From an uncultured Lachnoclostridium sp. (lineage in GTDB: Bacteria; Bacillota; Clostridia; Lachnospirales; Lachnospiraceae): DNA of 64,000 bases. A program made the translations under genes and the position numbers. The stretch's first letter is position 1; every line of letters starts with the position of its first letter. Shown here piece after piece: positions 3 to 63,967 of the stretch. Where the stretch lies: assembly GCA_946415315.1 (NCBI GenBank), contig CAMKRZ010000004.1:62001-126000 (forward strand), given 5' to 3'. A model generated the notes under the pieces. That model was not told the origin of the DNA. It worked only from the letters and a program-made list of their open reading frames with translations, and made no database searches.

Positions 3-1670
3 GCCTCATTTTCCGTGGAAGCGACCGGCAACACGCCGTTGACCTATCAGTGGCAGTACATGTCGCTGAACGGAACTACCTGGGCGAATTCCGCGCAGAG
101 CGGCAATAAGACCGCAACGCTTTCCGTGGCGGTGACAGCCGGTATGCAGGGTTACAAATTCCGCTGCGTGGTCACGGATGCGAAGGGGCAGAAGACCTAC
201 TCGAAGGCAGCTACGCTGACGGTGTACAATGTCCCGGTGACGACATCTACGTTCTCCGACAGTGTGTTCCGCAGTTATGTCTCAAGCAACTTTGACAAAG
301 ACCGAAACGGAACACTCAGTTCGGCGGAACTGCAGGCGGTGAAAACCATAGATGTACACGGTATGGGAATCGGCAGCCTGAAGGGCATCGAGTTCTTCAC
401 GAAACTGCAGACGCTTAACTGCAGCAGTGAGATCGCAGTCGCGATCTTCTATGCCGGCGGGAAGACAGGCACTCCGATCAGTGAGATTTCCGGGATCGAC
501 ACGAGCAGGAAATACCGTTTCGGATACCAGTTGGTCGGCAATACCATCACCTCGCTGAATCTGAAGTGCAACACCGAATTGAAGACGCTGAATTGCAGCG
601 GAAACCGGCTGACGTCGCTGGATCTGAGCGCGAACAGCAAGCTGGAGGAGCTGGCGTGCGTCGGGCTGTATTACTACGATACGGAGAAAGAGGTCACCTA
701 TGATTACCGGTTGAGCAGTCTCAACCTGAGCAGTAACACGGCTTTACGATCGCTGAACTGTTCGATGAACCGGCTTACGACGCTGGATCTGAGCAAGAAC
801 ACAGCGCTCACTGACATCGATTGTTCCAACAACGAGCTGACGTCGCTCTCGGCATCGGCCTGTACGAACCTGGTGATGCTTCTCTGCAACGACAACAAGA
901 TTACCTCCCTGAACATTTCCGGATGTACGCTTCTGCAGATACTGGAGTGTTCGACCAATAACCTTTCGACGCTGAACATTACGAACAACAAGGATCTGGT
1001 ACTGCTTTACTGCCGGTTCAACAAACTCAAGACGCTGGATATCAGCAAAAATCAGTACCTGACGTACTTCTACGGTTACGGCAACACCAACAGCCTTTCC
1101 TCCGTGGAAAATGCATTGGGCCTGTCTTACTACCGCAACAAATACTTCTACGAGCTGACGGCAGCCGACCTGCAGACCATGTCGGGCATCATCGCAGCGA
1201 ATACCGACAGCACCATGAACCGTGTCGAGAAGATTAAGGCCATTCATGACTGGATGGTGTGCAACCTTCGCTATGACAATATTAATTACAATCAGTACAG
1301 CGCATCGCAAACACTGAACGGCCATGTCGCGGTGTGCAGCGGATATGCGGCGTTGTTTGCGGCATTTATGGATCTGATGGGAATCCCGAACGAGCAGATT
1401 TACGGCGATAACCACGCATGGAATGCGGTGCAGCTGGAGGACGGAAAATACTATTATGTCGACTGCACCTGGGATGATCCGCTTCTCTTACTGAACACGG
1501 ATCCGGAAGGATCTTCCGATTATCCGGACGGAAGAAATATGACGTATGACTACTTCCTGATCGGAATATCGACAGCTTTTAAAAAGGACGCGGTAAGCCA
1601 TGTAGCGTTCGAGATGCCGGTTATGGTTTCCCTGACGGACTACGACTGGCGGTCGGCGATCGGTAATTAA
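3..1670 (+). CDS. Surface protein with Ig-like, EF-hand-like, LRR and transglutaminase-like domains (5' end outside window)
   Basis: The reading frame is open to the left edge, and the first visible residues (ASFSVEATG) match the interior of the Ig-like repeats in the neighbouring proteins, so the true start lies upstream. Visible order: end of an Ig-like repeat (to about nt 230), an EF-hand-like loop (DKDRNGTLSSAE, about nt 295-330), LRRs of the type LTSLDLSxNxxLxxLxCxxN (about nt 380-1100), then a C-terminal transglutaminase/cysteine-protease-like domain. That domain has candidate catalytic Cys (codon at 1335, AVCSGYAALF), His (1413, DNHAWN) and Asp (1461, YVDCTWDDP) in the spacing usual for this fold. 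It is probably secreted, although the signal peptide is not visible. It is first of four related neighbours and the only one with this domain. Substrate is unknown; peptidoglycan or host/dietary protein are both possible. Confidence 0.85.
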   Translation, partial: ASFSVEATGNTPLTYQWQYMSLNGTTWANSAQSGNKTATLSVAVTAGMQGYKFRCVVTDAKGQKTYSKAATLTVYNVPVTTSTFSDSVFRSYVSSNFDKDRNGTLSSAELQAVKTIDVHGMGIGSLKGIEFFTKLQTLNCSSEIAVAIFYAGGKTGTPISEISGIDTSRKYRFGYQLVGNTITSLNLKCNTELKTLNCSGNRLTSLDLSANSKLEELACVGLYYYDTEKEVTYDYRLSSLNLSSNTALRSLNCSMNRLTTLDLSKNTALTDIDCSNNELTSLSASACTNLVMLLCNDNKITSLNISGCTLLQILECSTNNLSTLNITNNKDLVLLYCRFNKLKTLDISKNQYLTYFYGYGNTNSLSSVENALGLSYYRNKYFYELTAADLQTMSGIIAANTDSTMNRVEKIKAIHDWMVCNLRYDNINYNQYSASQTLNGHVAVCSGYAALFAAFMDLMGIPNEQIYGDNHAWNAVQLEDGKYYYVDCTWDDPLLLLNTDPEGSSDYPDGRNMTYDYFLIGISTAFKKDAVSHVAFEMPVMVSLTDYDWRSAIGN

Positions 1671-1703
1671 TGCGTCATCGGAAAATGAAAACTTGATCCT
1701 GTT

Positions 1704-1733
1704 GCGGGGGCATGTGATGTGCCCCCGCTTTTT
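1704..1733 (+). terminator. Intrinsic terminator after the LRR-transglutaminase gene
   Basis: A 9-bp perfect stem (GCGGGGGCA / TGCCCCCGC) with a 7-nt loop is followed by five T residues. It lies 34 bases after the stop codon. Confidence 0.85.
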
Positions 1734-1748
1734 ACCGTTTTCCGATTG

Positions 1749-1777
1749 TTGACAAGCCTTTTTATTTTCGCTATGAT
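1749..1777 (+). promoter_or_regulatory. Sigma-A-type promoter for the 942-aa LRR/Ig protein
   Basis: TTGACA at 1749-1754 and TATGAT at 1772-1777 are separated by 17 bp, about 100 bp upstream of the start at 1879 and directly after the preceding terminator. Confidence 0.75.
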
Positions 1778-4874: not shown

Positions 4875-7460
4875 ATGATGGGAAGAGCAAACAGCAGGAC
4901 ATCCCGGATCATCGCCGTTTTCATGACGGTGATCATGGTGCTGAGCGCAGGGATGCTGAACCTTGGCGACGGGGGGAATACGGCGCAGGCGGCTGCGATC
5001 ACTCCGGTGAAGATCAATGCAACGAACTTTCCGGATCCTATTTTCCGGTCGGTGATCTCCGGTCCGGATTATGACCGGGACGGAAACGGAACGCTGGACG
5101 CCAAAGAACTCGGCGAGACGATAAACATTTATTGCGAAGGTTTGGGGATCAAATCGATCAAGGGCGTGGAGTATTTCGTCAACCTCCAGGGACTCTGGTG
5201 CAAGGACAACAAGATCTCGTCCATGGACATCCGTAAGCTCACGGACCTTCGGGGACTGTGGTGCTCCGGCAACCCGCTTACGTCCCTGAATCTCACGCAG
5301 AACAAGAAACTGCTGTGGGTTTACTGCTATGATTGTAAGCTGACGGCGCTGGATGTGTCGCAGAATCCGAAAATGGCATTTATCGAGTGCAACACCAACC
5401 CGATCACAAAACTGGATGTCACGCACAATCCGGAGCTGGAACACCTGACCTGCGGCACCTGCGAACTTACGACGCTCGACTTGAGCAAGAACCCGAAGCT
5501 GGCCCACCTCGACGCGTTCCGGAATCATTTTACGAAGCTGGATGTCACGCACAATACGAAACTGAAGCGTCTGGACGTCTGGGACAATCCGGGGCTGGGA
5601 AGCATCGACGTCAGCAAGTGCCCCGGGCTTCAGTATTACAACTGCGCCAACAACGACGCCACCACGGTGGATGTGAGTCACAACCCGGAGCTGCAGAAGC
5701 TGATCTGCAGTTACAACGAACTCAAGAAGCTGGATCTTTCGAAAAATCCCAAGCTGGCTTGTCTGTATTGCGAGGACAATCAGCTGACGTCCCTGAATCT
5801 GAGCTACAATCCGAAGCTTCGTTACCTGCAGGCGGCGATCAACAACTTTACTTCGCTGAACATCGGCAACAATCCGTTCCTTGTGAAGACCTACAAGGAG
5901 GGCAGCCACGTGCAGGAGTGGTTCGGACAGTCCTGGACGATCGATTACGGCGGAGAAGACTCCACGGGCGGCGACAACAAATTCTACATCTGGCTCAACA
6001 GCGGCATCACGGTGAGCACGAAAGCGACCGTCACGGTTCCTGTCACGGAGGAACGGTATTCGGATCTGAATTCCGGCATAACGGAGGAATCGCTGCTCAC
6101 GCGAGAGGATGTCGTGCTTGCGCTGTACGAGCTGGCAGGGAAGCCGAGTGTCAGCGGACTGACGACACGTTTTACGGATGTAAAGGTGGGAACCGCATAC
6201 ACAAACGCGTTGCTCTGGGGCGAGAAAAACGCGATCTGCGTCGGCTATCCGGATACCTCTTCCGACACATTCGGGTTCGGAAAATGGATCACCCGGCAGG
6301 ACCTGGTGTATATGCTGATGCGGTACTCCGAAGTCAAGAAGTACAAGAGGGCGATCGATTTCGGCCGAAGCGATGATTATCAGGATTATTTTGATATCGA
6401 TTACGACCACTGGGAGGCGCTCTGCTGGTCCGCGACATGGAACATCATGGAGGCCAGGGAGCAGGTGGGCTCGACGAAACCGGGACTGTTGGACGCGCCG
6501 AAATCGGAGCTGTGGCTTGATCCCTACGGAAGAGTGACCCGTGCTGATTTCAAGAAGATCATGCAGCGACTCTTCGAGGTGAACAGCGTGACGGTGACGT
6601 CCTCGATGCTCGCCATCCTGAATAAAGCGGATCTGCGGATCGTCACGCAGCCGGTCGGCAAGAGCGTGACGGTGGGTACGGCAGCGAATTTTACGGTTGT
6701 CGCGACCGGAAAATCGGTCACTTACCAGTGGCAGTACCGTAAGAATTCTTCCGGTACCTGGGCGAGCTCCAACCAGAGCGGTGCGAAGACGAAGACGCTT
6801 TCGGTAGCAACTACGTCAGGGCTTCACGGATACCAGTTCCGCTGTGTTGTAAAGGACGGCAGCGGGAAGACATTGTACACAAGCGCGGCTACGCTGACGG
6901 TGAAACCGAAGATCACCGTGCAGCCGGTGGACAAATGTCTGCTGGTCAATTCCACGGCAAAATTCACAGTGGAAGCGATCGGCAAGAGCACGCTCACGTA
7001 TCAGTGGCAGTATCGGAAGAACGAATCCTGCGAATGGGCGAACTCCGGGCAAAAGGGCGCGAAGACGGCGACTCTGCTGGTTTCCGCTACGTCCGCGATT
7101 CACGGTTACCAGTTCCGCTGTATCGTGACGGACGGGAACGGGCAAAAGACCTATTCGAAGATCGTCACACTGACGCTGAAACCGCGGATTACAACGCAGC
7201 CGACGGACAAGAGCGTGAAAGCGGGGTCCACGGCGAAGTTCACGGTGGCAGCGACCGGCAGGAGCAAGCTCACGTACCAGTGGCAGTACCGAAAGAACTC
7301 CTCGTATGCCTGGGCCAATTCCGGGCAGACCGGCGCGAGGACGGCAACGCTTTCGGTGGCGACCAAAGCATCGCTCAACGGCTACCAGTTCCGCTGCATC
7401 GTGACGGACGGCAACGGACAGAAGACAATTTCATCCGTGGTCACGCTGAAGGTGAATTAA
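4875..7460 (+). CDS. Secreted LRR protein with SLH-like segment and three Ig-like repeats
   Basis: 861 aa. The frame is open further upstream, but ATG at 4875 follows AGGAAG and begins a signal peptide (MMGRANSRTSRIIAVFMTVIMV, cleavage near AQA-AA). Order: EF-hand-like loop DRDGNGTLDAKE (~residues 70-81), LRRs (~95-340), then ~400-580 resembling S-layer-homology repeats (LTREDVVLALYELAGKP, FTDVKVG, NALLWGEKNAICVGYPD, ITRQDLVYMLMRYSE, and later VTRADFKKIMQRLF), then three Ig-like repeats. SLH modules normally bind secondary cell-wall polymer, so this member is probably wall-attached through that segment, unlike its neighbours. SLH modules usually sit at a terminus; here the segment is internal. 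The function of the LRRs is unknown. Confidence 0.87.
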   Translation: MMGRANSRTSRIIAVFMTVIMVLSAGMLNLGDGGNTAQAAAITPVKINATNFPDPIFRSVISGPDYDRDGNGTLDAKELGETINIYCEGLGIKSIKGVEYFVNLQGLWCKDNKISSMDIRKLTDLRGLWCSGNPLTSLNLTQNKKLLWVYCYDCKLTALDVSQNPKMAFIECNTNPITKLDVTHNPELEHLTCGTCELTTLDLSKNPKLAHLDAFRNHFTKLDVTHNTKLKRLDVWDNPGLGSIDVSKCPGLQYYNCANNDATTVDVSHNPELQKLICSYNELKKLDLSKNPKLACLYCEDNQLTSLNLSYNPKLRYLQAAINNFTSLNIGNNPFLVKTYKEGSHVQEWFGQSWTIDYGGEDSTGGDNKFYIWLNSGITVSTKATVTVPVTEERYSDLNSGITEESLLTREDVVLALYELAGKPSVSGLTTRFTDVKVGTAYTNALLWGEKNAICVGYPDTSSDTFGFGKWITRQDLVYMLMRYSEVKKYKRAIDFGRSDDYQDYFDIDYDHWEALCWSATWNIMEAREQVGSTKPGLLDAPKSELWLDPYGRVTRADFKKIMQRLFEVNSVTVTSSMLAILNKADLRIVTQPVGKSVTVGTAANFTVVATGKSVTYQWQYRKNSSGTWASSNQSGAKTKTLSVATTSGLHGYQFRCVVKDGSGKTLYTSAATLTVKPKITVQPVDKCLLVNSTAKFTVEAIGKSTLTYQWQYRKNESCEWANSGQKGAKTATLLVSATSAIHGYQFRCIVTDGNGQKTYSKIVTLTLKPRITTQPTDKSVKAGSTAKFTVAATGRSKLTYQWQYRKNSSYAWANSGQTGARTATLSVATKASLNGYQFRCIVTDGNGQKTISSVVTLKVN

Positions 7461-7515
7461 CCGGCGGGATTACGTTCATTTTCCGATAGATACGATGAAA
7501 GAGAGGATCAGTAGG

Positions 7516-10500
7516 ATGAAGAGACATTTAGCAGGCCGGCTTTTGGCAGTTCTCCTGTCGGTGACCATGGCGGTATCGTTACTGTACTTTGCAGGTCTCG
7601 GCGGCAAAGCACAGGCGGCGTCGGAAGGGCCGACGATTACCACGCAGCCGGTTGACAAGAATCTGCTTGTAGGCTCCACGGCGAAGTTCACCGTGGCTGC
7701 AACCGGGAGCGGAACACTGACATACCGGTGGCAGTACCGGAAGGACGCATCAAGCGAATGGGCCGCATCCGGACAGCAGGGCGCGAAGACCAATACGCTT
7801 TATGTATCTGCTACCGCAGGCCTTCATGGCTTCCAGTTCCGCTGCGTCGTGACGGACGGAAACGGGCAGAAAGCGTATTCGAATGCGGCGACGCTGACGC
7901 TTAAGCCGAGGATCACCACGCAGCCGGTTGACAAGAGCCTTCTGGTGGGCTCCACGGCGAAGTTTACAGTCGCAGCGACCGGAAAGGGCACGCTGAAGTA
8001 TCAGTGGCAGTACCGTAAGAACGCATCAAGTGCATGGGCCGCATCCGGACAGCAGGGCGCGAAGACCGACACACTTCTGGTATCCGCAACGGCAGGCCTT
8101 CACGGCTATCAGTTCCGCTGTATTGTGACAGACGGAAACGGGAAGAAAACGTATTCGAGCGCCGCGACACTGACATTAAAGCCGAGGATCACCACGCAGC
8201 CTACGGGCAAGAGCGTGACGCCCGGCACCAAGGCACAGTTTACGGTGGCGGCGACCGGCAAGAGCACGTTGACGTATCAGTGGCAGTTCCGAAAGGATTC
8301 GTCAAGTGCATGGGCAAATTCCGCACAGAGCGGCAACAAGACCGCAACGCTCTCTGTAGCTGCAACGAAAGGGCTGAACGGGTATCAGTTCCGCTGCGCC
8401 GTTACAGACGGCAACGGGCAGACAACATATTCGAGCGCTGCGACGTTGAAGGTGTTCGGTATCCTCAAGCAGCCGGTTTCGTATTCCGTTCCTGCCGGGG
8501 TGCTGTCGCAATTTTCCGTGACAGCGGGCGGAACAGGGCTCACGTATCAGTGGCAGTACCGCAGAAACGCCTCGGACACGTGGAAAAGCTCCGCCCAGAG
8601 CGGCAATAAGACGGCGACACTTTCCGTGGCGACGACCGAAGCTTTGAACGGCTATCAGTTCCGCTGTATCGTGAAGGACGGTGCGGGCAATTCCGCAACA
8701 TCCAATGCGGCCACATTGACGATCGGGGAGCTCGTGATCGATGCGCATGTGTTCCCGGACGAGGCGTTCCGGAATTATATCGCGGAAAATGTTGACAGTG
8801 ACGAAAGCGGGACGCTCAGTGCAGATGAGATCCTCGGAAGGACGTGGCTGAGAGTATATGACCATGTTGAAATGTACGGCTACGCGGGAATCGGAGCTGC
8901 CGACCTCAAGGGTGTCGAGATTTTTGCCAATCTTGAGGAGTTGGTTTGTTCCGGCAACCTTCTCACAAAACTGGATCTGAGCAGAAACAAGGAACTGACA
9001 TGGCTGGAGTGTAAAGGCAACCGTCTGACCTCGCTGGATCTGAGCGGATTCACGCAGTTGACTTACCTGAACTGCAGCGACAATCTGCTGACATCGCTGA
9101 ATATCGGCGATTGCACGCAGTTGGCTGCCTTATCCTGCGAGGGCAACCGTCTGACATCGCTTGATGTGAGCGCCTTTACGAAGATGGAAATTCTCTATTG
9201 CAGCAACAATCAGTTGACATCTCTCAATGTGAGTAATTGTACCTCGCTGAAAATACTGGATTGTCGCGGAAACCGGCTGACTTCACTGGATCTGAGCTAT
9301 GACGGAAAAATGTCGCAGGTGGATTGCAGCTACAATCAACTGACGTCGCTGAATGTCGCGGGACTCGAGGAATTGCACACGCTGAAGTGTAATTCCAACC
9401 TGCTGAAATCACTGTCCCTAAGCGGATGCTCCGGCGTGCAGGAAGTATATTGTCAGGACAATCAGTTGGAGTCGCTTACATTCAGCGGCAACAGTAAACT
9501 GAGCTGGCTGGATTGCAGCAACAATAAGCTGAAGACATTGAACACCGCTGTATTGCCGGGGCTTAAAATGTTGAATTGCCGTGACAATCAATTGACAACA
9601 TTGACAGTAAGCAACTGTCCCGATTTAAACACTCTGTTCTGTGAAAATAATAAGCTGACGGAGCTTCTGCTTCAGAACAATGCGATCCTCAGAGTATTGT
9701 ACTGCGAGAACAACAGCCTAACGGCGTTGGACACGAGTGCGAATCCCGAGCTTCATACGTTGAGGGCAAAAGGTAACGCGCTCGGCAGCCTCAATCTGAG
9801 AAACAACACGAGTCTCGGGTATGTGAGCACGGATGTTGCGATAATCCTTGTGCAGCCGAAATCGTACGAGGCAGCGATCAACGGAAAGGCAGTGTTTACG
9901 GTTGTCGCGGACGGAGATGGTATCAAGTATCAATGGCAGTACAGAACGTCCGCATCGTCATCCTGGGCGAATACTGATCTGACCGGTCGTCGTACGAACA
10001 TTTTGGCGTTTACCGCGACGTCGTCGATGAACGGGTATCAGTTCCGATGCGTGGTTACCGATAAGAACGGAGTGAGCGTAACCTCGGATGCAGTGAAACT
10101 GACGGTGGGGACGATTACGATCAATGAAAACCGGTTCCCCGATGATATTTTCCGTAGCTTTATTTCGGAAAATTTCGATACAAGCGGGGATGGCACGCTC
10201 AGCGCGGCGGAGCTGGCGGCAGTAAAGACTTTGAATGTTGCCGGAATGGATATTGAGAGCCTTCGTGGGCTTGAGTATTTTACGGAGGCGGAGACGTTAT
10301 ATTGCGGCAGTTATTACGTTACCGAAGAAACGTGGGGAGGGTATCGTTCCAACAGTCTCACGTGGCTGGATCTCAGCAGAAATATAAACCTGAAGGAACT
10401 TGACTGTAATAATAATTACTTGAATAAGCTTGATGTAAGAACCTGCAAAAAACTTCAGTCTCTTGAATGTTCATGGAACGGGCTTTCCAGCATTGACCTG

Positions 10501-11082: not shown

Positions 11083-11772
11083 ATGATAGAAGTCAAGGGT
11101 ATTACAAAACAGTACGGGAAGAAGGTTGTTCTGCGGGACGCGACATTTTCCGCGAAACAGGGCGAGTGCGTTGCCATCGCGGGTGCGAACGGAAGCGGCA
11201 AATCGACGCTTCTCAAGATTCTTGCGGGCACGCTTCGCGCGGGCGGAGGTTCGTTTACGGCATTCGGGCATGACATGCTGAAAGAGCCGGCGGAACGCGA
11301 GCGCCTGATCGGTTATGTGCCGCAGGAGAACCCGCTGATCGCGGAGCTGACGGCTCTCGACAACCTGAAGCTGTGGTATTGCAACAGCCGTTACGATATC
11401 GAGCAGGAGCTCGAGCGCGGAACGCTGGCCATGCTCGGGATCCCGGAGTTTCTGAACGTGCGTGTCGATGCCATGTCGGGCGGTATGAAGAAGCGTCTGA
11501 GCATCGGCTGTGCGGTGGCCAACGACCCGCCGGTGCTGATCCTCGATGAGCCGGATGCGGCGCTCGACCTGATCTGCAAGGAGGCAATCCGCGACTATCT
11601 CGCGGAGCACAAGCGGCGCGGCGGTATCGTGGTGATAACAACCCACGATGAGGAGGCGCTCTCCCTTGTCGACAAGCTGATGGTAATGCAGGAAGGGTAT
11701 CTGCGCGAGGTTGATAAGAATCTTCGCGGGGACGGACTGCTTGCGGAACTGAAGAAGGGAATTGTCGGATAG
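11083..11772 (+). CDS. ABC transporter ATP-binding protein
   Basis: 229 aa, the usual size for a stand-alone ABC ATPase. All nucleotide-binding motifs are visible: Walker A GANGSGKST (~residues 33-41), a Q-loop region (GYVPQEN), signature MSGGMKKRL, Walker B VLILDEPDAALD and the switch His in ITTHDEE. Ribosome site TTGAGGA precedes the ATG. It is the motor for the two ABC-2-type permeases encoded downstream, so the complex probably exports a substrate or modifies a resident membrane component. The substrate cannot be read from sequence. It is followed after 25 bases by the membrane-anchored protein of the same operon. Confidence 0.92.
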   Translation: MIEVKGITKQYGKKVVLRDATFSAKQGECVAIAGANGSGKSTLLKILAGTLRAGGGSFTAFGHDMLKEPAERERLIGYVPQENPLIAELTALDNLKLWYCNSRYDIEQELERGTLAMLGIPEFLNVRVDAMSGGMKKRLSIGCAVANDPPVLILDEPDAALDLICKEAIRDYLAEHKRRGGIVVITTHDEEALSLVDKLMVMQEGYLREVDKNLRGDGLLAELKKGIVG

Positions 11773-11797: not shown

Positions 11798-13420
11798 ATG
11801 GAACAGGATCGGAAACTCGTCCGTCCGCCGTTCGACAGCGACGGCAATGTGGTCTGGACGACGGAGGAAAAACCGATGAAGAAGAAAGCCCTGCGGTGGT
11901 GGCTGTTTCTCATCCCGCTAGGGCTTATTTGCGTTATCGGGCTCGGAACGTTCCTGTACCGTTCATCTCAGCGAAAGACGCCGCAGGAGCTGTGCCGCGC
12001 GGCGATTCGCGATGCCTTCGAGGAGTCTCTCGGGTATCGCGAGCCGATGATGAAGGTGATGCATATCGAGGAGCTTGCGGAGTATCTGCGCGACGAACCG
12101 ACGGATGTCGGCATCGCGATCCAGCTACGCAACACCGACATGACTCCGGCGGACCTCGGTCTTGAGGAGATGCTTGGGTCGACCCGATTCAGCGACTATA
12201 ACGGGATGGGGTTTGCGTTCATCAACAGTTACGACGGTGACGCGTACTCTCTCGATGTGAGATTTGCCGTGAGCGCGCTCACGCTCTCGGTGCTTCAGTT
12301 GCGATACGATAACGGGGAGCTGCAGATTGCCTCTCCGAAAATTCTGAAGTCCGTGCTCACCGTGCCGATGAAGGATGTCCCGGGGCAGTGGAAACAGTCG
12401 GCGGCATGGTCGCTTCTTTCGGAGGCGGATCGTAAGACGGCGCAAAATGTTGTGAGCCTTGCCTTCGGGTACGGCACGCGCGCGCTTGCGATCGGCCGTA
12501 CGTTTCGGGACGCGATCGTGGCGGCCTATCCGGGCGGAGCGTCCGAGATCGACCGCATGGTGGACGCCATCCGGTATGAGCAGCTGAAGGACGAGAAGGG
12601 AAAGGAACTGACGGAGCGACTGATCGTTGGCAGCGAGAAGGTTCCCTGCTACATTTTCCGGATCGATACCGACGAGGAGATGTTTCGGGAGATCACCGGG
12701 AAACTCAGCGGAATTCTGGAGAGTCTCGCCGGAAGCATCGCAGCGGAGAATGGCAAGCTCAGCTGGCGCTTAGCACCGCAGGAGGACGGCGGTAACGGTA
12801 TCGACGTGCTCGCGTACGTGACGAAGGAAGGCGAGTTGGCGCAGCTGACGGCGGAGGTGCACGGTTTCTTTGGGGAGAAACCGGCCAATCTGTCGGTGAA
12901 ACTGAAGTGTCTCGGCGCGGACGATCCGCAGGACAAACTGCAGCTGGCGATCAGCGGCGACATCGGCGGCGAGACGTTCGAACTGAGCGCAAAGAAAACG
13001 ATCACGACCAACACCCGCTCGGTGGTGTCGAAGTCGTTTGACATAACACTGAAAATGCCGGGCATGGATGAGATCGGCTTAAACGGCACGGCTTCCTACA
13101 GCATTTCGACGGGGCTGTTCGAATGGACGGCAAATGTTACCGACCGCGGGAAGACACTTGGGACGCTTTCGCTGAACGCGGAATGCAATTTCAAGAGCGG
13201 CTGGCAGATGGACATTTCGAACCTGACCTACCGCGATCGCGCTACGGACAAGCATGTCACCATGTACGGGCAGCTCAAGGTTACGCCGTCCCGCAACGGC
13301 GTGCTGAGCCCGGAGGGAGAGAAGGTACCGCTTCTCACGATGTCGGAGGAGAAGGCAAAGGAGATCCTGGAACAGGGCAAATCGCAGGTGCAGTGGTATA
13401 TCAACCAGTTGTTCAACTAA
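11798..13420 (+). CDS. Membrane-anchored extracytoplasmic protein of the ABC operon
   Basis: 540 aa. GAGGAG lies 7 nt before ATG 11798 (MEQDRKLVRPP), which is preferred over ATG 11792 and an upstream TTG overlapping the ATPase stop. Topology: ~30-residue charged cytoplasmic N terminus with KKKALRWW, one membrane helix (LFLIPLGLICVIGLGTFLY, ~residues 36-54), then ~480 extracytoplasmic residues that appear mostly beta-rich in the C-terminal half. No catalytic motif was recognised. Its position between the ATPase and the permeases suggests an exporter accessory or substrate-capturing component. A family name cannot be given with confidence. Confidence 0.75.
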   Translation: MEQDRKLVRPPFDSDGNVVWTTEEKPMKKKALRWWLFLIPLGLICVIGLGTFLYRSSQRKTPQELCRAAIRDAFEESLGYREPMMKVMHIEELAEYLRDEPTDVGIAIQLRNTDMTPADLGLEEMLGSTRFSDYNGMGFAFINSYDGDAYSLDVRFAVSALTLSVLQLRYDNGELQIASPKILKSVLTVPMKDVPGQWKQSAAWSLLSEADRKTAQNVVSLAFGYGTRALAIGRTFRDAIVAAYPGGASEIDRMVDAIRYEQLKDEKGKELTERLIVGSEKVPCYIFRIDTDEEMFREITGKLSGILESLAGSIAAENGKLSWRLAPQEDGGNGIDVLAYVTKEGELAQLTAEVHGFFGEKPANLSVKLKCLGADDPQDKLQLAISGDIGGETFELSAKKTITTNTRSVVSKSFDITLKMPGMDEIGLNGTASYSISTGLFEWTANVTDRGKTLGTLSLNAECNFKSGWQMDISNLTYRDRATDKHVTMYGQLKVTPSRNGVLSPEGEKVPLLTMSEEKAKEILEQGKSQVQWYINQLFN

Positions 13421-14683: not shown

Positions 14684-16026
14684 CGGATACGAATCGACAA
14701 CCGGATAGGGACGCCCCGGAGGAGCTGATCCGCACGGTCGAGGAGGCAGCATTGCCCGAGTCCTGCGCGGCAACCGAGGAGACGGTCGCGCACAGACAGC
14801 CGTTTGAGTCCCCGGAAGATCTCTCCGTAAGCCCGATCACGGGCGCGGACAAGGTGAAGGGCACGGTCAGGCGTTTCTTCGTGTGGCTTCTGCTGTCCGC
14901 CAAGCGGTTTCTCAAGAAACCGTCGTTCGTGCTCATTTTTCTCATGCTGCCCGCGGTGCTGTTGCTGTACCGCGCGCTGATCACGGCGGACGACGGCAAG
15001 CTGCATGTTGCCGTGTATTTTGAGGAGAAGGACGAGTTTGCGAAGACATATCTTCGCGAGCTTTCGGAAAATGTTCCCGAACTCTTCGTTTTCTATGAGT
15101 GCGAGGAGGAAGAGGACCTCTACAGCGATGTGGCGGCGGGACGCGCCGAGTGCGGATATTCTTTTTCCGCGGGGATCGCGCAGAAGCTGCCGACCGAGGA
15201 GTGGCAGGGGCTGATCACGGCCGTCCTGTCCGACCAGACGATGTACGGCGAGTTCGTCAACGAGATCGCGTACATCAAACTGATCCGCATCCTCGGCAAG
15301 GATCTGATGCTGGAGTACCTGGTCAACAAGAGCGGCGTCGTGAAGGAAGGCGACAGCGACAAGATCAGGGAATTGCTGGAGAAGAAGTTCGGAGACGAGA
15401 TGGCAAGCAACATACTCGTCGAGTATGTGACGACGGCGCAGAAGAACGGCGAACTCGTCATCGAGGAGAAGAAGCACGACGCGATCAGCGTTCTCAAGAA
15501 GCCGATCCGCGGCACCATCGCGATCTTCGTGCTGCTGACGGGTCTTGCGGGGTTGGTGTTCTGGTACCAGGACGATGCCGAAGGTCGGTTCCGCGTCATG
15601 GCGCGTGAGAGACGTCCGCTGATCTCCTTCGCGTCCATCTTGCTCCCGACGGCGATGGCCGGGATCGTCGGCCTTGTGTGCCTTGCGATCAGCGGGCTGT
15701 GGACGACGACCGGGCGGGAACTGTTTTCCATGCTTTTGTATGTTTTGCTTGCGGCGGGATTGTGCAACATCCTTCGATTCCTGATCCCGTCGGTGCATGC
15801 GGTCTGCGCGATGATCCCGATCCTCGTGCTGATCAGTTACCTGTGCTGCCCGATCCTGATCGACATCGGACAGACGATGCCCGTGATCCGCTATGTGCGC
15901 GCGCTGCTCGCGCCGCAGTACTATCTGCGGATCTATGAGGGCAGAACCGCAGGCGCGCTCGCAGTGGCGACAGGAGTGCTGCTGGCGGTTTCGGCGCTGT
16001 TGTCGATCCCGGAGAGAAACCGGTAG
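14680..16026 (+). CDS. ABC-2-type transporter permease (second of pair)
   Basis: 448 aa from GTG 14680, which overlaps the preceding stop and has GGAGGGAG 5 nt upstream; an in-frame ATG at 14665 is the alternative. It has an unusually long acidic cytoplasmic N terminus (~75 residues), a first helix (FVLIFLMLPAVLLLYRALI), a ~170-residue extracytoplasmic loop, and a C-terminal block of about five to six helices (AIFVLLTGLAGLVFWY, ILLPTAMAGIVGLVCLAISG, LFSMLLYVLLAAGLCNILRF and others). It pairs with the upstream permease and the ATPase. The acidic extension is not typical of the family and may be a regulatory or docking tail. Confidence 0.83.
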   Translation: MTDTNRQPDRDAPEELIRTVEEAALPESCAATEETVAHRQPFESPEDLSVSPITGADKVKGTVRRFFVWLLLSAKRFLKKPSFVLIFLMLPAVLLLYRALITADDGKLHVAVYFEEKDEFAKTYLRELSENVPELFVFYECEEEEDLYSDVAAGRAECGYSFSAGIAQKLPTEEWQGLITAVLSDQTMYGEFVNEIAYIKLIRILGKDLMLEYLVNKSGVVKEGDSDKIRELLEKKFGDEMASNILVEYVTTAQKNGELVIEEKKHDAISVLKKPIRGTIAIFVLLTGLAGLVFWYQDDAEGRFRVMARERRPLISFASILLPTAMAGIVGLVCLAISGLWTTTGRELFSMLLYVLLAAGLCNILRFLIPSVHAVCAMIPILVLISYLCCPILIDIGQTMPVIRYVRALLAPQYYLRIYEGRTAGALAVATGVLLAVSALLSIPERNR

Positions 16027-35698: not shown

Positions 35699-35820
35699 AC
35701 CGGCAAAGGTGAAAGACAAAAGAAGTACAGGAAACCGTACCGGTTCGGTTTCGGAGGAGACACGGAAGTGCCGGGGGCATTTTCCGAACGATCTGCACAT
35801 GCAGGAGAAAGGACGACAAC

Positions 35821-43638: not shown

Positions 43639-43668
43639 CGGCATTTTCCGAAAAACAAAGGAAACGAC

Positions 43669-48431: not shown

Positions 48432-48473
48432 TCCGCGAAACTGCCGAAAAACTTCATTTTCCGTAAAATATCG

Positions 48474-49196: not shown

Positions 49197-50204
49197 GTGA
49201 GATCATTCCGCAGGGATATCTGGGAGGAAGGCGAGTACACCTACGCTGCGGCGTACGGGTTTGTGCCGAATGTTCGTGCGTTTCTGCACGAGGAGGACGA
49301 AACTGCGAGGGATGCCATGCTGGTGGTTCCAGGCGGCGGTTATTGCATGCTTGCGGCACACGAGGGTGAGCCGGTGGCGAAGATTTTCTATGAGCAGGGG
49401 ATGAACGTGTTCGTGCTCACGTACACTACGGACATCACATTTTCCGTGCCTTTGAAGAAGCAGCCTCTTCGGGACATCGCGCGTGCGATCCGCTATCTGC
49501 GGGCCCACGGCGAGGAGTTCTGCATCCGGGGTAAGAAACTGGCAATCTGCGGGTTCTCCGCAGGCGGACATGTGTGCGGCAGCGTGACGGTGCACTGGGA
49601 TGATGTCGAGGAGACGAACCCGGTCTACGCATGTTTCTCCGCGCGGCCGGATGCGTCGATCCTGTCGTACCCGGTGATCACGGCGGGTAAGTATACCCAT
49701 GATTCGTCGATTCAGGCGCTTCTCGGACCGGAGCCGACGGAGGAGGAACTCGAGTATTTTTCGCTTGAGAAAAATGTGACCAAGGACACGCCGCCGACAT
49801 TCCTGTGGCAGACGGCGACGGACATGCTCGTACCGGTGGAGAACAGCTACCTCTTCGCGGAGGCGTGCCGCGCCAACGGTGTTCCCTTCGCGCACTATGT
49901 CTTCCCGTCGGGCTTCCACGGGCTCGGAGCAGGCAAGGGCTTCGGCTTCGGCGGCTGGACGGACGGCAGTTATGTGATGGAGCAGGTGGAGCTGGCTGTC
50001 GCAGCGGTGAAGGCCGGAAAGGGCGTGAACGTTCCGGAGCGCCGCGTGGAGGAGCTGAAACTTCAGTTCCCGGATAAGCAGGAGACTCCGGAACCGCCGA
50101 AGGATGCAGAGGCACCGGCCTTTGAGTTCAAGATTGACGAGACGCTCTCGGAGGATGTCGGACTGTGGACCGAACTGGCGAGAGTGTGGTTTGCAAGACT
50201 GTGA
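49197..50204 (+). CDS. Alpha/beta hydrolase (esterase-like)
   Basis: 335 aa from GTG 49197 (VRSFRRDIWEEGEYTYAAAYGFVPN), with GAGGACGGAAGA upstream; the open frame reaches further upstream into the preceding gene without support. Oxyanion region MLVVPGGGYCML, nucleophile S121 in GFSAGGHVCGS, Asp in TATDMLVPVENS and His in PSGFHGLG form a complete triad. Pattern matches the BD-FAE/acetyl-esterase group that removes acyl groups from carbohydrates. No signal peptide, so it is cytoplasmic. A ~45-residue Pro/Glu-rich then helical C-terminal tail is additional to the fold. Confidence 0.87.
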   Translation: MRSFRRDIWEEGEYTYAAAYGFVPNVRAFLHEEDETARDAMLVVPGGGYCMLAAHEGEPVAKIFYEQGMNVFVLTYTTDITFSVPLKKQPLRDIARAIRYLRAHGEEFCIRGKKLAICGFSAGGHVCGSVTVHWDDVEETNPVYACFSARPDASILSYPVITAGKYTHDSSIQALLGPEPTEEELEYFSLEKNVTKDTPPTFLWQTATDMLVPVENSYLFAEACRANGVPFAHYVFPSGFHGLGAGKGFGFGGWTDGSYVMEQVELAVAAVKAGKGVNVPERRVEELKLQFPDKQETPEPPKDAEAPAFEFKIDETLSEDVGLWTELARVWFARL

Positions 50205-51812: not shown

Positions 51813-51869
51813 AACAGCGGAAAATGCAGCTGAGACACGCAAAAAAACTTGCATTTTCCGCTGTTTTTT
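51813..51869 (+). terminator. Terminator whose stem is an inverted pair of the recurrent 9-mer
   Basis: A 16-bp perfect stem AACAGCGGAAAATGCA (51813-51828) / complement (51850-51865) has a 21-nt A-rich loop and six T residues (51864-51869). It contains CGGAAAATG and CATTTTCCG, the word repeated throughout the window. Confidence 0.85.
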
Positions 51870-52015: not shown

Positions 52016-55000
52016 ATGAAAAAGAGTACGGGGATTTTGAAGAGAATCGGAGCGGTCCTGATGATCGTTTGTCTTGTTGTGACAAGCGGTTATTTTTCGG
52101 AGCTCACGGGGCTTTTCGGACGGCAGCTGCAGGCCAAAGTGACTGCGAAGGCCGCCGGGGAGGAAAAGTGGGTTGATGACATTTTGTATAATTTTGCGAA
52201 ACTGTGGAAGTACAATGCCGAGGGAAAAAAGACGGAGATAAAAACCGCGGGTAACAAGGAAGCGTTTTTCCGATTGAATAAAACGACTATCCGTGTCAAA
52301 GAGGATTATAAAGCCGACGCGGCATTTTATGAAGACAAAGCGGAGAATTATAACCTGCTTACCGATTGGTATAAGACCGATTATGAGGGGCTCCAAGCGG
52401 GTCTCTTTGTGACAATAGAGGGCACGAACTATATTTATGATAAAGACGGAAACGTTGCTTCCGGAATGAAGAACGATGGTTGGAATTACGTTTATTTCAA
52501 TGACTATGAGCCCAACCTTGCTGCAGCAGTCGCGTCCGGTGACGAATACGGTGACGATAAAGGCTACTATGAAGTAGTACCGGAAACAAACAATGCACCA
52601 GAAGGTGCAAAACTGAGAATCCAGCATTTTAACAATAAAATCGGCGGAACTTCCGGCGGTTGGCTGCTGCCTAACAATTGGTTCGATGATCACGCCGCAA
52701 CGGAGCCCAGCGGGGACGGCTTGAAGAGTTTCCATTGTGACTATAAGATCACGCTGGTCGATACTGCGATTCAGCCGGTGTACAACTATCTCAAGGTCAA
52801 CAATGTATATTACAGACTGAAGAAACAGAATGATGCCATCCTGATTGCTCCGGTCAATATATTTGATACATCGAATGATAAAGAACCTAAGATCGATCAG
52901 ACGAAATTCCCGTATGATGCGTTGCCGTATGATTTCAGTCACTATTCGGAGACCCTTACTGTCAACGAGACCGAGTATGTTTACTGGGATCCGGCAAAAC
53001 AGGCAACGCCGCCGGATGTACAATATTTTTATACAATCGACACGCAAAATGTAACACTGAAAGCGGTGCAGAAACTGACCCATGCCGATACCTGGGATGA
53101 GGCTCAGGGAGGCTGGCTGGATGGTGCTACCGCGGCTGACTGGGGAAATATCAACACAAAGGCGTTTCACCGGGAATATACGGTAAAACTGCATAATTCA
53201 AACAATACGTATACGATGACGTTTAGGGATGAGAACGATACGACCACGCTCAAAACCGTAAAAGTCAAATGCGGCGATAAAACGAAGTACACAGGAGATG
53301 AGCCGGTCAAGAGTTCTTCCAACGGTGTTTCTTACAAGTTCTACGGATGGAAAGACAAGAAGACCGGTGAAGTCTATGCCAACGACAGTTTGCCGGCGGC
53401 GCTTGGAAATACGACGTATTTAGCCGTGTTCAAGGAAGTGTTAACCATTACTGCTGACAGTGATGAGAAGACTTACGACGGCAGTGCTTTGACCAAGAAT
53501 ACATTTACTGTAACCGGGTATCCGGTTGATCTCGCGGACGCAGATAAGCCTGTGTTTACTGTTTTGATGACGGACGGCAGTACGATTACGAATGCAGGCA
53601 CTAAGCCCAACGTTATCGCGACAGTCAACGGCGTTGCGGTGAACACGGAAAATGCGGTTCTGGTCGGCGACTATTATGTGCTGGCAGCGGACGGTACATT
53701 GAAAGTAAATCGAAAATCCGTGACTATTACAGCTAAGAATAATGATAAGACTTATGACGGAACTGCGCTGACGGAATCCGGATTCACGACAAGCGATCTG
53801 GAGCCGGGGGACACCCATACGTTTACGGTTGTGATGACCGGGGACAGCACGATCACGAATGTTGGTACAAATTCGAATGTGATCGCAACCGTGGATGGTG
53901 TGGCTGTGACCACGGGAACGGCGACGGTGGTAGGAAACTATCTGGTAACCACCGCAAATGGTGAGTTGGCGATTGTGAAGCGTATCGTTACGCTGACGAG
54001 CGAAGACGGAGAGAAGCCGTATGACGGAACACCGCTGACGAAGCCGAATGTGACTGTCGGCGGAGACGGATTTGTCGAAGGCGAAGTGAGCGACATTAAG
54101 GCGACCGGCAGCGTGACAACCGTTGCGGATGGTGAAGTCACCAATACCATCACGTACACCAAAGGTGATAATTTCAATGCAAACAACTATACGATCACCA
54201 AGAATGAAGGCAAACTGACGATTACCAAAAGCACGAATGCTCTGGTCATCACTTCCTCCACGAAGAGCTGGACATATGACGGAACGACCCATAAAGATGA
54301 AGTCTATACAGTGACATACGGCGGCACGACGATTGCTGCCGATGCATCCGGCAAAGTATTCACGCTGCCCACCGGTGATACGGTGACGATTACTGCAACG
54401 GCTGACGGCGTGAAGGATTACAATGCTGACTATGATAAAAATAATACGTTCAAGTATGAGCTCACCAATGCAGGCAACTACGGTAGCGTAACCACGAATT
54501 TCGGTACGCTGTCCATCGAGAAGCGCATTGTTACTTTGAAGAGCGCGAGTGCCGAAAAAGAGTATGACGGAACAGCGCTGACGAGTCCTGAAGTGACTGT
54601 CGGCGGAGACGGATTTGTCGAAGGTGAAGTGAGCGACCTCAAGGCGACCGGCAGCGTGACAAACGTTGGTGAAGTCATCAATACCATCACGTACAACGAA
54701 GGTGTTGCTTTCAATGCAAACAATTATACGATTACCAAGACAGATGGCAAGTTGACGATTACTGAAAACACGAAGGCGCTGGTAATCACTTCCTCCACGA
54801 AGAGCTGGACCTATGACGGCACGACCCATAAAGATGAAGTCTATACAGTGACATACGACGGAACGACGGTTGATGCCGATGCGTCCGGCAAAGTATTCAC
54901 GCTGCCTACCGGCGATATTTTGACGATCACCGCAACAGCGGCCGGCGTGAAGGATTACAATACAGGCTATAAAGAGAATAATGAATTTACGTATAAGCTT

Positions 55001-59182: not shown

Positions 59183-59259
59183 TCGAATCGCTGCGAAGGC
59201 AGCGGTAGCAGATCGAACTCATCCTGTCAGACTCGAAAATACAATATCGGAAAATGAAG

Positions 59260-60930: not shown

Positions 60931-60937
60931 GAAAAGA

Positions 60938-60966: not shown

Positions 60967-61046
60967 GGAACAAGGCAGTCCGGCAGTCGCGTATGGGAGC
61001 GCATGCCGACGGAGGGACCGCTGTTTCACTAAGGAAACGAAGAGTG

Positions 61047-61063: not shown

Positions 61064-61089
61064 AGCTGTTTTGAGTTAGGAGAAATGCG

Positions 61090-61230: not shown

Positions 61231-61231
61231 T

Positions 61232-62677: not shown

Positions 62678-62681
62678 ACAG

Positions 62682-62736
62682 AAGGAACTGTCGATGGCGA
62701 GCGGCTTGAGCGCACCATGGCGGCAGTTCCTTTTTT
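62682..62736 (+). terminator. Terminator of the TPR operon
   Basis: Stem AAGGAACTG (62682-62690) / complement ending at 62730 has a long structured loop (ATGG/CCAT inside) and is followed by six T residues. Confidence 0.8.
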
Positions 62737-62824
62737 GTGCGGAAAATGTTCGGTTTTCGAAAGCAGGGCATTGCCTGTGGACTTGCTTCCGTCTCTGTTG
62801 TTGAGACGCGTTGCCTGAGACCTG

Positions 62825-63967
62825 TCAGGTCTGTGCCTCCTCCGGAGCCGGTGCCTTGCGGATCACAGGGCGCTTGTCTCCGCGGGGGTACATCAGCCGG
62901 CTCAGCACATACAGCGGTGTGAACCGCGTCTCGCGGATCAGCAGCGGAATGTATCGGCTACAGCGCCGGCAATGCAGACACATGGCAGCGACTTCCCCCC
63001 CGTCCTCACGGAGCGTGAAATACGGGATGTGATTGCGGAACCGGAATTTCTTGGTGCGGCGAACTTTGTTGAACAGGTACTCGTCGGTCTTGAGGTTGTC
63101 CGGCGAGGAGAGGGAATAGTCCCAGACGTAGCGGTCGTAAGGGACGGAGTCCGCGTCAGCCTCCCGGATCTCACAGAGATTCCGGTACCGGAACGATTTG
63201 TCGTGGCCGGTCAGGATCTTGCACCAGGCGGTCAGCAGCACGGTGTCGGTGATGCGCGAGGGCTTTCCTTCCTCAGCCTGCTTGCGGCACACTTCCTCGA
63301 GCCAGTTCGTATTGGCTCGGTAGACATACATCACGAAATCGAGGAACTGGCGAAGCCGGCTGATCGTCCAGTACGCGCAGTGAGGGGAGACATTTTCCGT
63401 AAGAAAAGCGTCGGAGGCGGTTCCCGTGCAGGCAAAATCAGCGTCGCCGATGTCCAGTTTGCACAGGTCTCCGAAAATGAGCACGTCACTGTCACACAGG
63501 AAGCAGCGCTCGATCCCTCGCTCCTTCATAAAGCCGTACAGCGCAAAATGTCGCTCCAGGCAGGCGAGGTCAAACTCCGCGTCGGAATCCTCCCCGTACG
63601 GGCGGAAAATGCTTCGGAACTGTTCGGTCTCCTCCGCATTGCAGGTAGAGGCGTCTGCCCAGTTGGCGACGTATCCGCGGTTGCTGTTGTCACCGAGCAG
63701 GACTACGTTGCGGTAACCGCAGGAGCGGCCGGCGCGACGCAGAATATCATAGACATAACTGTCATTTCCCGTGTGACAGAAAACCACGGGGCAGGTGCCC
63801 GAGAGATCGCGGTTCAGCACAGGATACCGTATGCGGGTTTCCGCGCCGAACGAGAGATACAGCAGGAACGGATAGCAGGCCGACAGAAAGCGAAGGGCTT
63901 CGATCGGTTCCTGCGCGGTCACGCACTGACCGCACGCGAGGGCGGAGAGCACGACGAGGGAATCCAT
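62825..63967 (-). CDS. Putative glycosyltransferase
   Basis: 380 aa from ATG at 63967-63965 (MDSLVVLSALACGQ), with GAGGACC about 8 nt upstream; a GTG at 63991 or a start beyond the window edge is possible, so the N terminus may be incomplete. Middle part has FLCDSDVLIFGDL, a DxD-like nucleotide-sugar/metal site, preceded by NVVLLGDNSNRGYVANW and ERHFALYGFMKERGIERC, as in GT-A folds that act on surface glycans. No membrane helix is evident. A C-terminal Cys-rich patch (CLHCRRCSRY) is unusual. Donor and acceptor are unknown. Confidence 0.75.
   Translation of the reverse strand: MDSLVVLSALACGQCVTAQEPIEALRFLSACYPFLLYLSFGAETRIRYPVLNRDLSGTCPVVFCHTGNDSYVYDILRRAGRSCGYRNVVLLGDNSNRGYVANWADASTCNAEETEQFRSIFRPYGEDSDAEFDLACLERHFALYGFMKERGIERCFLCDSDVLIFGDLCKLDIGDADFACTGTASDAFLTENVSPHCAYWTISRLRQFLDFVMYVYRANTNWLEEVCRKQAEEGKPSRITDTVLLTAWCKILTGHDKSFRYRNLCEIREADADSVPYDRYVWDYSLSSPDNLKTDEYLFNKVRRTKKFRFRNHIPYFTLREDGGEVAAMCLHCRRCSRYIPLLIRETRFTPLYVLSRLMYPRGDKRPVIRKAPAPEEAQT

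What the first reader, a model, noticed from the sequence alone, without database searches (positions are those of the whole stretch)
7..63611. Massively over-represented 9-mer CGGAAAATG/CATTTTCCG, enriched downstream of stop codons
At least 25 exact copies were counted in 64 kb on both strands (14 in one orientation, 11 in the other). At about 55% GC a random sequence gives roughly 0.4, estimated from base frequencies. Copies occur in unrelated genes (ABC ATPase, mutS2, sbcC, yhaM, sigma-linked permease), so protein repeats do not explain it. Nine copies fall in the ~5% of the window that is intergenic, mostly within 5-80 bases after stop codons. Even spread, both orientations and 3'-end enrichment are the known properties of DNA uptake sequences in Neisseriaceae and Pasteurellaceae, which are not described for Clostridia. 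Other explanations are a nucleoid, repair or terminator-related protein site, or a bias for AAAAT-containing codon pairs.
Basis: partly seen in the sequence, partly recalled or inferred. Interest (0 to 1): 0.85.

Follow-up and report, generated by a model that had tools for sequence, protein, structure and literature searches.

The report
Candidate DNA-uptake tag in Lachnospiraceae
A nine-letter DNA word is scattered through this gut-type bacterium's chromosome far more often than chance allows, with variant spellings in related species, much like the tags that some other bacteria use to recognise and import DNA of their own kind, though uptake itself has not been tested.

Summary
CGGAAAATG occurs 25 times in the window and 1019 times (506/513) in the 2.93-Mb assembly, against 11 for the word read backwards. 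In 504 kb, coding copies number 124 against 12.9 after synonymous-codon shuffling, intergenic copies 47 against 1.1: codon-pair bias is excluded. Copies show no replication-strand bias, are evenly spread and four times denser between genes. In this Lachnospiraceae genus density follows the MutS2 tree (clade A 181-408/Mb, B 96-162, C 28-46). Spelling shifts too: CGGAAAATG in seven of eight sampled clade-A genomes, CGGCAAATG in the eighth and two of three clade-B samples, CGG[G/T]CAATG in two other genera. This resembles the uptake-sequence dialects of Neisseriaceae and Pasteurellaceae. ComEA, ComEC, a type IV pilus and a Tad-type operon are present. Against: the consensus is looser than USS/DUS; the intergenic excess is clear for CGGAAAATG only; clade C has the machinery without the motif; one motif-bearing genus lacks PilB; no receptor is known; competence is untested. 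Best reading: an independently evolved uptake sequence (about 0.57); chief rival, a genome-wide protein-binding site.

The parts
7..15 (-). CGGAAAATG copy, overlapping first base of first called gene
1679..1687 (+). CGGAAAATG copy, intergenic, 9 bases after stop; outer arm of a hairpin around a GC-rich terminator-like stem
6278..6286 (+). CGGAAAATG copy in gene 4923-7460
7477..7485 (-). CGGAAAATG copy, intergenic, 17 bases after stop
8783..8791 (+). CGGAAAATG copy in LRR/Ig-domain gene 7516-10794
11144..11152 (-). CGGAAAATG copy in gene 11083-11772
12652..12660 (-). CGGAAAATG copy in gene 11792-13420
15065..15073 (+). CGGAAAATG copy in gene 14665-16026
20291..20299 (+). CGGAAAATG copy in gene 20071-28911
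29114..29122 (+). CGGAAAATG copy near start of gene 29092-30132
34447..34455 (-). CGGAAAATG copy in mutS2 (33335-35698)
35778..35786 (-). CGGAAAATG copy, intergenic, 80 bases after mutS2 stop
40167..40175 (+). CGGAAAATG copy in gene 39557-40501
43454..43462 (+). CGGAAAATG copy in gene 42532-43638
43642..43650 (-). CGGAAAATG copy, intergenic, 4 bases after stop
46542..46550 (+). CGGAAAATG copy in AAA_23 gene 45197-48181
48455..48463 (-). CGGAAAATG copy, intergenic, 274 bases after stop; a one-mismatch inverted partner lies 10 bases away
49438..49446 (-). CGGAAAATG copy in gene 49155-50204
51818..51826 (+). CGGAAAATG copy, intergenic, first arm of an inverted pair that folds into a hairpin followed by six T
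51852..51860 (-). CGGAAAATG copy, second arm of the inverted pair
53646..53654 (+). CGGAAAATG copy in gene 52016-59182
59248..59256 (+). CGGAAAATG copy, intergenic between convergent genes, 66 bases after stop
62740..62748 (+). CGGAAAATG copy, intergenic between convergent genes, 63 bases after stop
63391..63399 (-). CGGAAAATG copy in gene 62825-63967
63603..63611 (+). CGGAAAATG copy in gene 62825-63967

Best explanation
CGGAAAATG (core CGG-NN-AATG across dialects) most likely works as a DNA uptake sequence. Inferred mechanism: a DNA receptor of the cell surface (a type IV or Tad pilin, or ComEA; unidentified) binds free DNA preferentially when it carries the 9-mer; ComEA/ComEC move one strand into the cell; the strand recombines with the chromosome. 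Because fragments with the word are taken up more often, alleles with the word spread by conversion, and the word accumulates wherever codons and regulation tolerate it (between genes, after stops, in permissive codon frames). When the receptor's preference drifts, the genome-wide spelling drifts with it, giving dialects. Shown here: over-representation, location, strand symmetry, low sharing of sites between species at similar density, dialects and their phylogenetic distribution, presence of competence and pilus genes. Inferred: binding, uptake, drive.
For: Genome count 1019 vs 11 for the backwards control. In 504 kb: CDS 124 vs 12.9 (max 23 of 100 synonymous shuffles), intergenic 47 vs 1.1 (max 4 of 100), so the enrichment acts on the DNA word and not on protein or codon use. 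CGGAAAATG 4.1-fold denser between genes in G000, shifted to the stop side (25 of 34 codirectional intergenic sites in the first half, KS p 0.029). No leading/lagging bias, 82/76 of the 158 of 172 sites that could be judged, p 0.69. Even spread, dispersion index 0.81 over 100 5-kb bins. No extended homology around copies, only a T-rich 5' flank in G000. Dialects: per Mb CGGAAAATG/CGGCAAATG is 341/60 in G000, 390/50 in G161, 150/210 in G165, 120/180 in G160, 55/105 in G162; CGG[GT]CAATG 268 and 258 in G073 and G175. These also exceed codon shuffles in CDS: CGGCAAATG 21 vs 1.8 (G165), 20 vs 2.1 (G162), 15 vs 1.0 (G154); CGG[CGT]CAATG 29 vs 4.1 (G073), 29 vs 4.4 (G175). Density follows the MutS2 tree. 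Of 149 other-genus genomes in one family sample, none but G073 (401) and G089 (337) exceeds 277 copies. Few aligned sites are shared between species (5 of 11 with G159, 4 of 7 with G151, 2 of 17 with G165) although density is similar, which speaks for renewal. ComEA-type match in 22 of 22 (one a fragment) and ComEC in 20 of 22 genus genomes; T4P operon and Tad-type operon in the own genome.
Against: Perfect-to-one-mismatch ratio 0.30 (172 vs 573; 0.53 after subtracting the order-3 Markov expectation), whereas Hin-type USS genomes have more perfect than one-mismatch copies (PMC1626085, passage). The intergenic excess is not general: CGGCAAATG has density ratios 2.1 (G165), 1.7 (G154) and 0.5 (G162) on 3, 3 and 1 intergenic copies; CGG[CGT]CAATG has 2 intergenic of 31 in G073 and 4 of 33 in G175. 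In clade B other words are commoner (G162: CGGAAAGCT 31, GAGAAGCTT 31, CGGCAAATG 21). Clade C has PilB, ComEA and ComEC but no motif. G175 carries a dialect but has no PilB-type hit (87% complete). Prepilin clusters next to pilB do not separate motif-bearing from motif-free clades. Exact inverted pairs within 60 bases are few, 6 against about 1.75 expected. All genus-level records are titled MAG; my searches listed no report of transformation in this group.
Confidence: 0.57

Rival explanations
1. A genome-wide binding site of a nucleoid, replication, repair or segregation protein that selects for its site at about 350 places per Mb, whose specificity drifts between species.
For: Even spread (dispersion 0.81) and a looser consensus with many one-mismatch copies are typical of protein sites; clade C keeps the competence and pilus genes without the motif.
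Against: Known chromosome-organisation sites of this kind (Noc, SlmA, matS, KOPS; recalled) are far fewer or strand-biased; no strand bias here. Low sharing of sites between species does not suit sites fixed at useful places. Selection on about 1000 dispersed weak sites is hard to maintain without a drive (inference).
Confidence: 0.24
2. A Chi-like recombination signal of AddAB/RecBCD that protects DNA ends and so promotes recombination at the word.
For: Frequency, presence in coding DNA and species-specific variation are compatible; a Chi drive would also renew sites.
Against: Chi-type signals are usually enriched on the leading strand (recalled); here 82 leading against 76 lagging by a gene-direction proxy. 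Chi is not expected to be four times denser between genes.
Confidence: 0.08
3. A mutational or biased-conversion product: a context-dependent mutation or repair bias that creates AAAAT-containing words without any receptor.
For: One-mismatch neighbours at positions 1, 3 and 9 are also raised, 2.6-5.9 fold over order-3 Markov, and several exceed codon shuffles (e.g. CGAAAAATG 43 vs 7.4 in CDS).
Against: The backwards word is at 11 copies and 9 of the 12 words changed at positions 5-8 are below expectation. A simple context bias does not readily produce a non-repetitive 9-letter word, nor shift its central letters in whole clades.
Confidence: 0.07
4. A transcription-terminator or RNA element that also occurs in genes by chance.
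For: 51818/51852 fold into a hairpin with z -4.6 followed by six T; 1679 and a one-mismatch partner frame a GC-rich terminator-like stem, z -4.4. Intergenic copies lean to the stop side.
Against: 124 of 172 copies in the sample are inside genes and about ten-fold over the codon-shuffle expectation. Only 6 exact inverted pairs. Two other intergenic copies of the window fold no better than shuffles or only slightly (z 1.2 and -1.7). The terminator scan of 45001-64000 did not list the 51818/51852 pair (its loop limit is 8) and found 22 sites against 18.5 expected. No Rfam family in the window.
Confidence: 0.03

Closest known systems
DNA uptake sequence (DUS) of Neisseriaceae, with dialects
   Same: Short non-palindromic word, of the order of 1000 copies per genome, both strands, spelling dialects that follow the family tree around a fixed core; two dialects side by side in one genome (S. 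muelleri in PMC3630211 section 6; G165 here).
   Different: Different word, different phylum, one-membrane cells (established for the phylum, not tested here). Fewer copies (1019 in 2.93 Mb against about 1900 of the 10-mer in N. meningitidis, PMC3630211 section 6). Exact inverted pairs are few here. No ComP-like receptor identified. Uptake untested.
Uptake signal sequence (USS) of Pasteurellaceae
   Same: 9-base core, many copies, subclade-specific variants with a shared sub-core, AT-rich flank (here a weak T-rich 5' flank; USS from PMC1626085 abstract and passages).
   Different: Hin-type USS genomes hold more perfect than one-mismatch copies; here 0.30. USS flanks form two defined segments; here there is only a weak tract on the 5' side, not seen in every clade-A sample.
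HIP1 of cyanobacteria (recalled)
   Same: Highly iterated short word in coding and intergenic DNA.
   Different: HIP1 is a palindrome; CGGAAAATG is not.
Chi sites (recalled)
   Same: Frequent short asymmetric word, species-specific.
   Different: No leading-strand bias here.

Membership tests
DUS/USS uptake sequence | Short asymmetric word in hundreds to thousands of copies far above Markov or shuffle expectation | tested here: met
   1019 copies, 11 backwards; 165 vs 16-38 by order 3-4 Markov in 464 kb
DUS/USS uptake sequence | Present in coding and intergenic DNA, not explained by protein or codons | tested here: met
   124 vs 12.9 in CDS, 47 vs 1.1 between genes
DUS/USS uptake sequence | Higher density between genes | tested here: inconclusive
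   CGGAAAATG 4.1-fold in G000, 6.9 in G165, 5.3 in G154; CGGCAAATG 2.1, 1.7 and 0.5 in G165, G154, G162; few intergenic copies in G073 and G175
DUS/USS uptake sequence | Both orientations, spread over the chromosome, no replication-strand bias | tested here: met
   506/513; 82 leading/76 lagging by local gene direction, dispersion 0.81
DUS/USS uptake sequence | Dialects that follow the phylogeny around a shared core | tested here: met
DUS/USS uptake sequence | Very strong consensus: more perfect than one-mismatch copies (shared by USS and DUS in PMC1626085) | tested here: not met
   0.30 in G000, 0.20-0.45 in nine other motif-bearing samples
DUS/USS uptake sequence | Inverted pairs forming terminators | tested here: inconclusive
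   6 exact opposite-orientation pairs within 60 bases vs about 1.75 expected in 504 kb; with a one-mismatch partner 25 opposite against 5 same-orientation, some overlapping; one terminator-like pair in the window
DUS/USS uptake sequence | Competence DNA-translocation genes in the genome | tested here: met
   ComEA-type 22 of 22 (G166 a fragment), ComEC 20 of 22 genus genomes; own genes checked by Pfam
DUS/USS uptake sequence | Cognate pilin receptor (ComP-like) linked to the motif | tested here: inconclusive
   Pilins present but prepilin clusters do not follow the motif (15 loci); G175 has a dialect without PilB
DUS/USS uptake sequence | Preferential binding, uptake or transformation of DNA carrying the word | not testable with these tools
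   needs bench work; genus-level records are all titled MAG
Chi / KOPS | Orientation bias to the leading strand (recalled) | tested here: not met
   82/76, p 0.69
HIP1-type palindrome | Self-complementary word (recalled) | tested here: not met
   CGGAAAATG is not its own reverse complement
Transposable or REP-like repeat | Homology that extends beyond the word | tested here: not met
   flanking columns of the G000 profile carry at most 0.25 bits

The most novel reading that the evidence does not exclude
An independently evolved self-DNA recognition system in one-membrane Clostridia: genome-wide uptake tags with at least three spellings (CGGAAAATG, CGGCAAATG, CGG[G/T]CAATG) over at least three genera of Lachnospiraceae, read by a pilus or ComEA receptor, which makes DNA exchange species-selective.
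Probability: 0.48. Interest if true: 0.92.

Novelty: new variant of a known kind. Interest (0 to 1): 0.82.

Why it matters
A 2016 review names two families, both Proteobacteria, with sequence-specific uptake (PMC5031613, passage). A third, independent case in Clostridia would show that uptake tags evolve in one-membrane cells too, would imply that these uncultured bacteria are naturally competent, and would give a genome-readable marker of who exchanges DNA with whom. It also offers a practical lead: adding the tag to DNA could make such species genetically tractable. The clade with the machinery but without the tag is a ready-made comparison for finding the receptor.

Tried and rejected
Codon-pair or protein-repeat explanation: rejected by synonymous shuffles. 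Terminator-only explanation: rejected by coding copies and few inverted pairs. Chi/KOPS: disfavoured by strand symmetry. Mobile repeat: rejected by lack of flanking homology. Dialect in G229: the loose pattern CGGNMAATG was raised genome-wide (894, control 95), but a 60-kb sample shows no specific word of this kind, so I do not count G229. G089 (AGGAAAATG) is too weakly sampled (62 kb, partly N) to call. G313 and G315 showed no such word in samples of 80 and 70 kb although the loose pattern was raised. PilM (PF11104) failed as a marker of the type IV pilus: it matches 228 of 299 genomes, many probably through other actin-fold proteins (my inference). Site conservation between species was inconclusive because synonymous sites are near saturation (71-82% DNA identity in the eight comparisons used). 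Motif deserts as foreign DNA were not pursued: the largest gap, 11.9 kb, is below the expected maximum of about 15 kb. EM motif search did not settle on the motif in G165, G162, G169, G163 and G089 (G169 and G163 have none by k-mer count). Two MutS2 trees used rows read on the wrong strand or frame and are void; one search replaces them. No structure predictions were made.
Full report
OBSERVATION. It is the commonest 9-mer there. My gene calls (an own simple caller) put 15 copies in genes, 9 between genes and 1 on a gene's first base; 8 of the 9 intergenic copies start 4-80 bases behind a stop codon. In the whole assembly (2,933,571 bases, 42 contigs) there are 506 + 513 copies, against 4 + 7 for the backwards word, that is 0.35 per kb.

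NOT CODONS, NOT PROTEINS. In 504 kb of the genome (window, 280 kb of contig 1, 120 kb of contig 2, and 40 kb of contig 5 that I had fetched for its pilus operon; 172 copies) I shuffled synonymous codons within each gene: coding copies fall from 124 (76 on the coding strand, 48 on the other) to 12.9 on average, at most 23 in 100 shuffles. Intergenic DNA shuffled with dinucleotides kept gives 1.1 (at most 4) against 47 observed. Control words GTAAAAGGC and CGGAACATG sit near expectation; one-mismatch relatives such as CGAAAAATG (43 vs 7.4 in CDS), CGGCAAATG (26 vs 4.4) and CGTAAAATG (21 vs 3.3) are raised too. Density between genes is 4.1 times that in genes.

ANATOMY. The expected-maximisation profile of G000 reads about ttCGGAAAATGc, hardest at AAAAT, with tolerance at positions 1, 3 and 9 and a weak T-rich 5' flank; the flank is T-rich in G159, G155 and G151 but not in G161, G158 and G168. 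One-mismatch words are raised 2.6-5.9 fold at positions 1, 3 and 9 and up to 2.7 fold at 2 and 4, while 9 of 12 words changed at positions 5-8 are below expectation. The ratio of perfect to one-mismatch copies is 0.30 (0.53 after subtracting expectation), lower than in Hin-type USS genomes, which hold more perfect than one-mismatch copies (PMC1626085, passage). There is no bias to the leading strand as judged by local gene direction (82/76 of 158 judged sites, p 0.69), spread is slightly more even than random (dispersion 0.81), position along genes is flat (24, 26, 28, 21, 25 by fifths), and codirectional intergenic copies lean to the stop side (25 of 34 in the first half, KS p 0.029). Exact inverted pairs within 60 bases are few, 6 against about 1.75 expected by uniform placement; with a one-mismatch partner there are 25 opposite- and 5 same-orientation pairs, some of them overlapping copies. 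In the window one pair (51818/51852) folds with z -4.6 and ends in six T; another copy (1679) and a one-mismatch partner frame a terminator-like stem, z -4.4; two other intergenic copies do not fold notably (z 1.2, -1.7).

DISTRIBUTION. The named records with the closest pilB (92-96% identity) are Lachnospiraceae MAGs, several with rumen, reticulum or omasum in the title. In one sample of 149 other genera of the family only G073 (401) and G089 (337) pass 277 copies. Inside the genus (22 genomes) counts run from 63 to 1060. A MutS2 tree of 21 of these 22 genomes (of G152 only an 81-residue piece was found) gives three groups with 100/100 support at their forks, rooted at the midpoint for drawing only: clade A (11 genomes, 181-408 per Mb), clade B (7 genomes, 96-162) and clade C (3 genomes, 28-46, which is within the range of unenriched genera) (densities with genome sizes rounded to 0.1 Mb). 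Spelling changes with clade: of eight sampled clade-A genomes CGGAAAATG is the commoner in seven, and in the eighth, G165, CGGCAAATG is (210 against 150 per Mb); of three sampled clade-B genomes CGGCAAATG is the commoner in two (G160, G162) and level in G154; both sampled clade-C genomes have neither above background. Coding copies of CGGCAAATG exceed codon shuffles in G165 (21 vs 1.8), G162 (20 vs 2.1) and G154 (15 vs 1.0), but in G162 other words are commoner still. Two other genera carry CGG[GT]CAATG at 268 and 258 per Mb (G073, G175); CGG[CGT]CAATG exceeds codon shuffles (29 vs 4.1, max 9; 29 vs 4.4, max 10, of 50). All these spellings fit CGG-NN-AATG. The intergenic excess is clear for CGGAAAATG (4.1, 6.9 and 5.3 fold in G000, G165 and G154) but not for the other spellings (CGGCAAATG 2.1, 1.7 and 0.5 fold in G165, G154 and G162; few intergenic copies in G073 and G175).

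TURNOVER. Between species few aligned copies are shared: 5 of 11 (G159), 4 of 7 (G151), 2 of 7 (G168), 2 of 6 (G155), 2 of 5 (G158), 2 of 17 (G165), 1 of 4 (G154), 0 of 2 (G162), against 0.27, 0.22, 0.13, 0.15, 0.16, 0.13, 0.07 and 0.08 for all coding 9-mers. Copies are thus mildly more conserved than their surroundings in the nearer species, but most are not shared while clade-A densities stay similar. I take this to point to a standing process which renews the word; the numbers are small and the species related.

MACHINERY. The own genome has ComEA (SLBB and helix-hairpin-helix domains) separated by three genes from ComEC (Competence and beta-lactamase-fold domains), a type IV pilus operon with PilB, PilT, PilC, two pilins, PilD, PilM and a further prepilin on contig 5 (PilB, PilT, PilC and PilD are my names for T2SSE, T2SSF and peptidase A24 hits in this gene order), and a Tad-type operon on contig 24 (TadZ-like, CpaF as T2SSE, TadC as T2SSF, TadE-like; Flp-like and TadG-like hits below the Pfam cut-offs). 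A ComEA-type match is in 22 of 22 genus genomes (in G166 a fragment) and ComEC in 20 of 22; the two misses are assemblies 79-82% complete. Of 14 genomes checked, 10 have a PilB-type ATPase; G175, G229, G240 and G315 have not; 13 have a hit of CpaF size and score (G092 has not). ComEC is in 12 of 15 checked, including the dialect carriers G073 and G175. Tad pili serve DNA uptake in Liberibacter (PMC8513845, title in the listing).

READING. The properties resemble DUS and USS: PMC3630211 (passages and section 6) describes eight dialects around a fixed CTG core that follow the family tree, and one genome with two dialects at once. I hold an uptake sequence to be the best explanation, at about 0.57. 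I do not file it as a member of DUS/USS: the very strong consensus was tested and not met, the intergenic excess is uneven, and uptake cannot be tested here. On the evidence of distribution it works like one. The chief rival is a chromosomal protein with many sites.

NOVELTY. A 2016 review names Pasteurellaceae and Neisseriaceae as the two families with sequence-specific uptake (PMC5031613, passages). My searches for uptake sequences with Lachnospiraceae, Firmicutes, Clostridia, Bacillota, rumen or Gram-positive (one search listed 15 of 27 papers) show by title and start of abstract no report of one in Clostridia. The word itself is in 173 papers; the 15 listed look by their titles like chance or primer matches. 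The library holds open-access papers only. Papers seen: passages of PMC1852404, PMC3630211 (and its section 6), PMC5031613, PMC12616744 and PMC1626085; abstract and outline of PMC2346458; the rest as search listings.

Noticed in passing
window 3796-8666: Other frequent words of the window (CAGCGGAACTG, CAGTGGCAGT) repeat with a period of mostly 276 bases in three neighbouring large genes (LRR and Ig-like domains by Pfam in 7516-10794); a like array lies on contig 1 at 127166-128930.
   Followed up: partly
L275-L277 (G229:C32:1-60000): TCAGCACCC (13) and CAACGAGGA (12) recur dispersed, some about 31 bases apart, in another Lachnospiraceae genus: looks like a small dispersed element.
   Followed up: no
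L229 (G313:C2:1-20000), 2803-6176: CGAGTGAGG 15 times with a spacing in multiples of 21 bases in two clusters: a tandem-type repeat, not a dispersed word.
   Followed up: partly
G160:C57:53707-54488: ComEC match split in two frames, each with one stop inside; may be a broken gene or an assembly error.
   Followed up: no
own genome sample, 504 kb: HIP1-like palindrome GCGATCGC at 53 sites against 29-33 expected by order 3-4 Markov: mild excess only.
   Followed up: partly
L092-L101 (G169:C1:1-200000): CCATCTGATA 11 times, three times as a - then a + copy 74 bases apart: possible inverted dispersed repeat in a motif-free species.
   Followed up: no
L102-L103 (G000:C5:58001-98000): The 40-kb stretch with the type IV pilus operon holds only 7 copies of the word (about 13.6 expected at the sample's mean density).
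   Followed up: no
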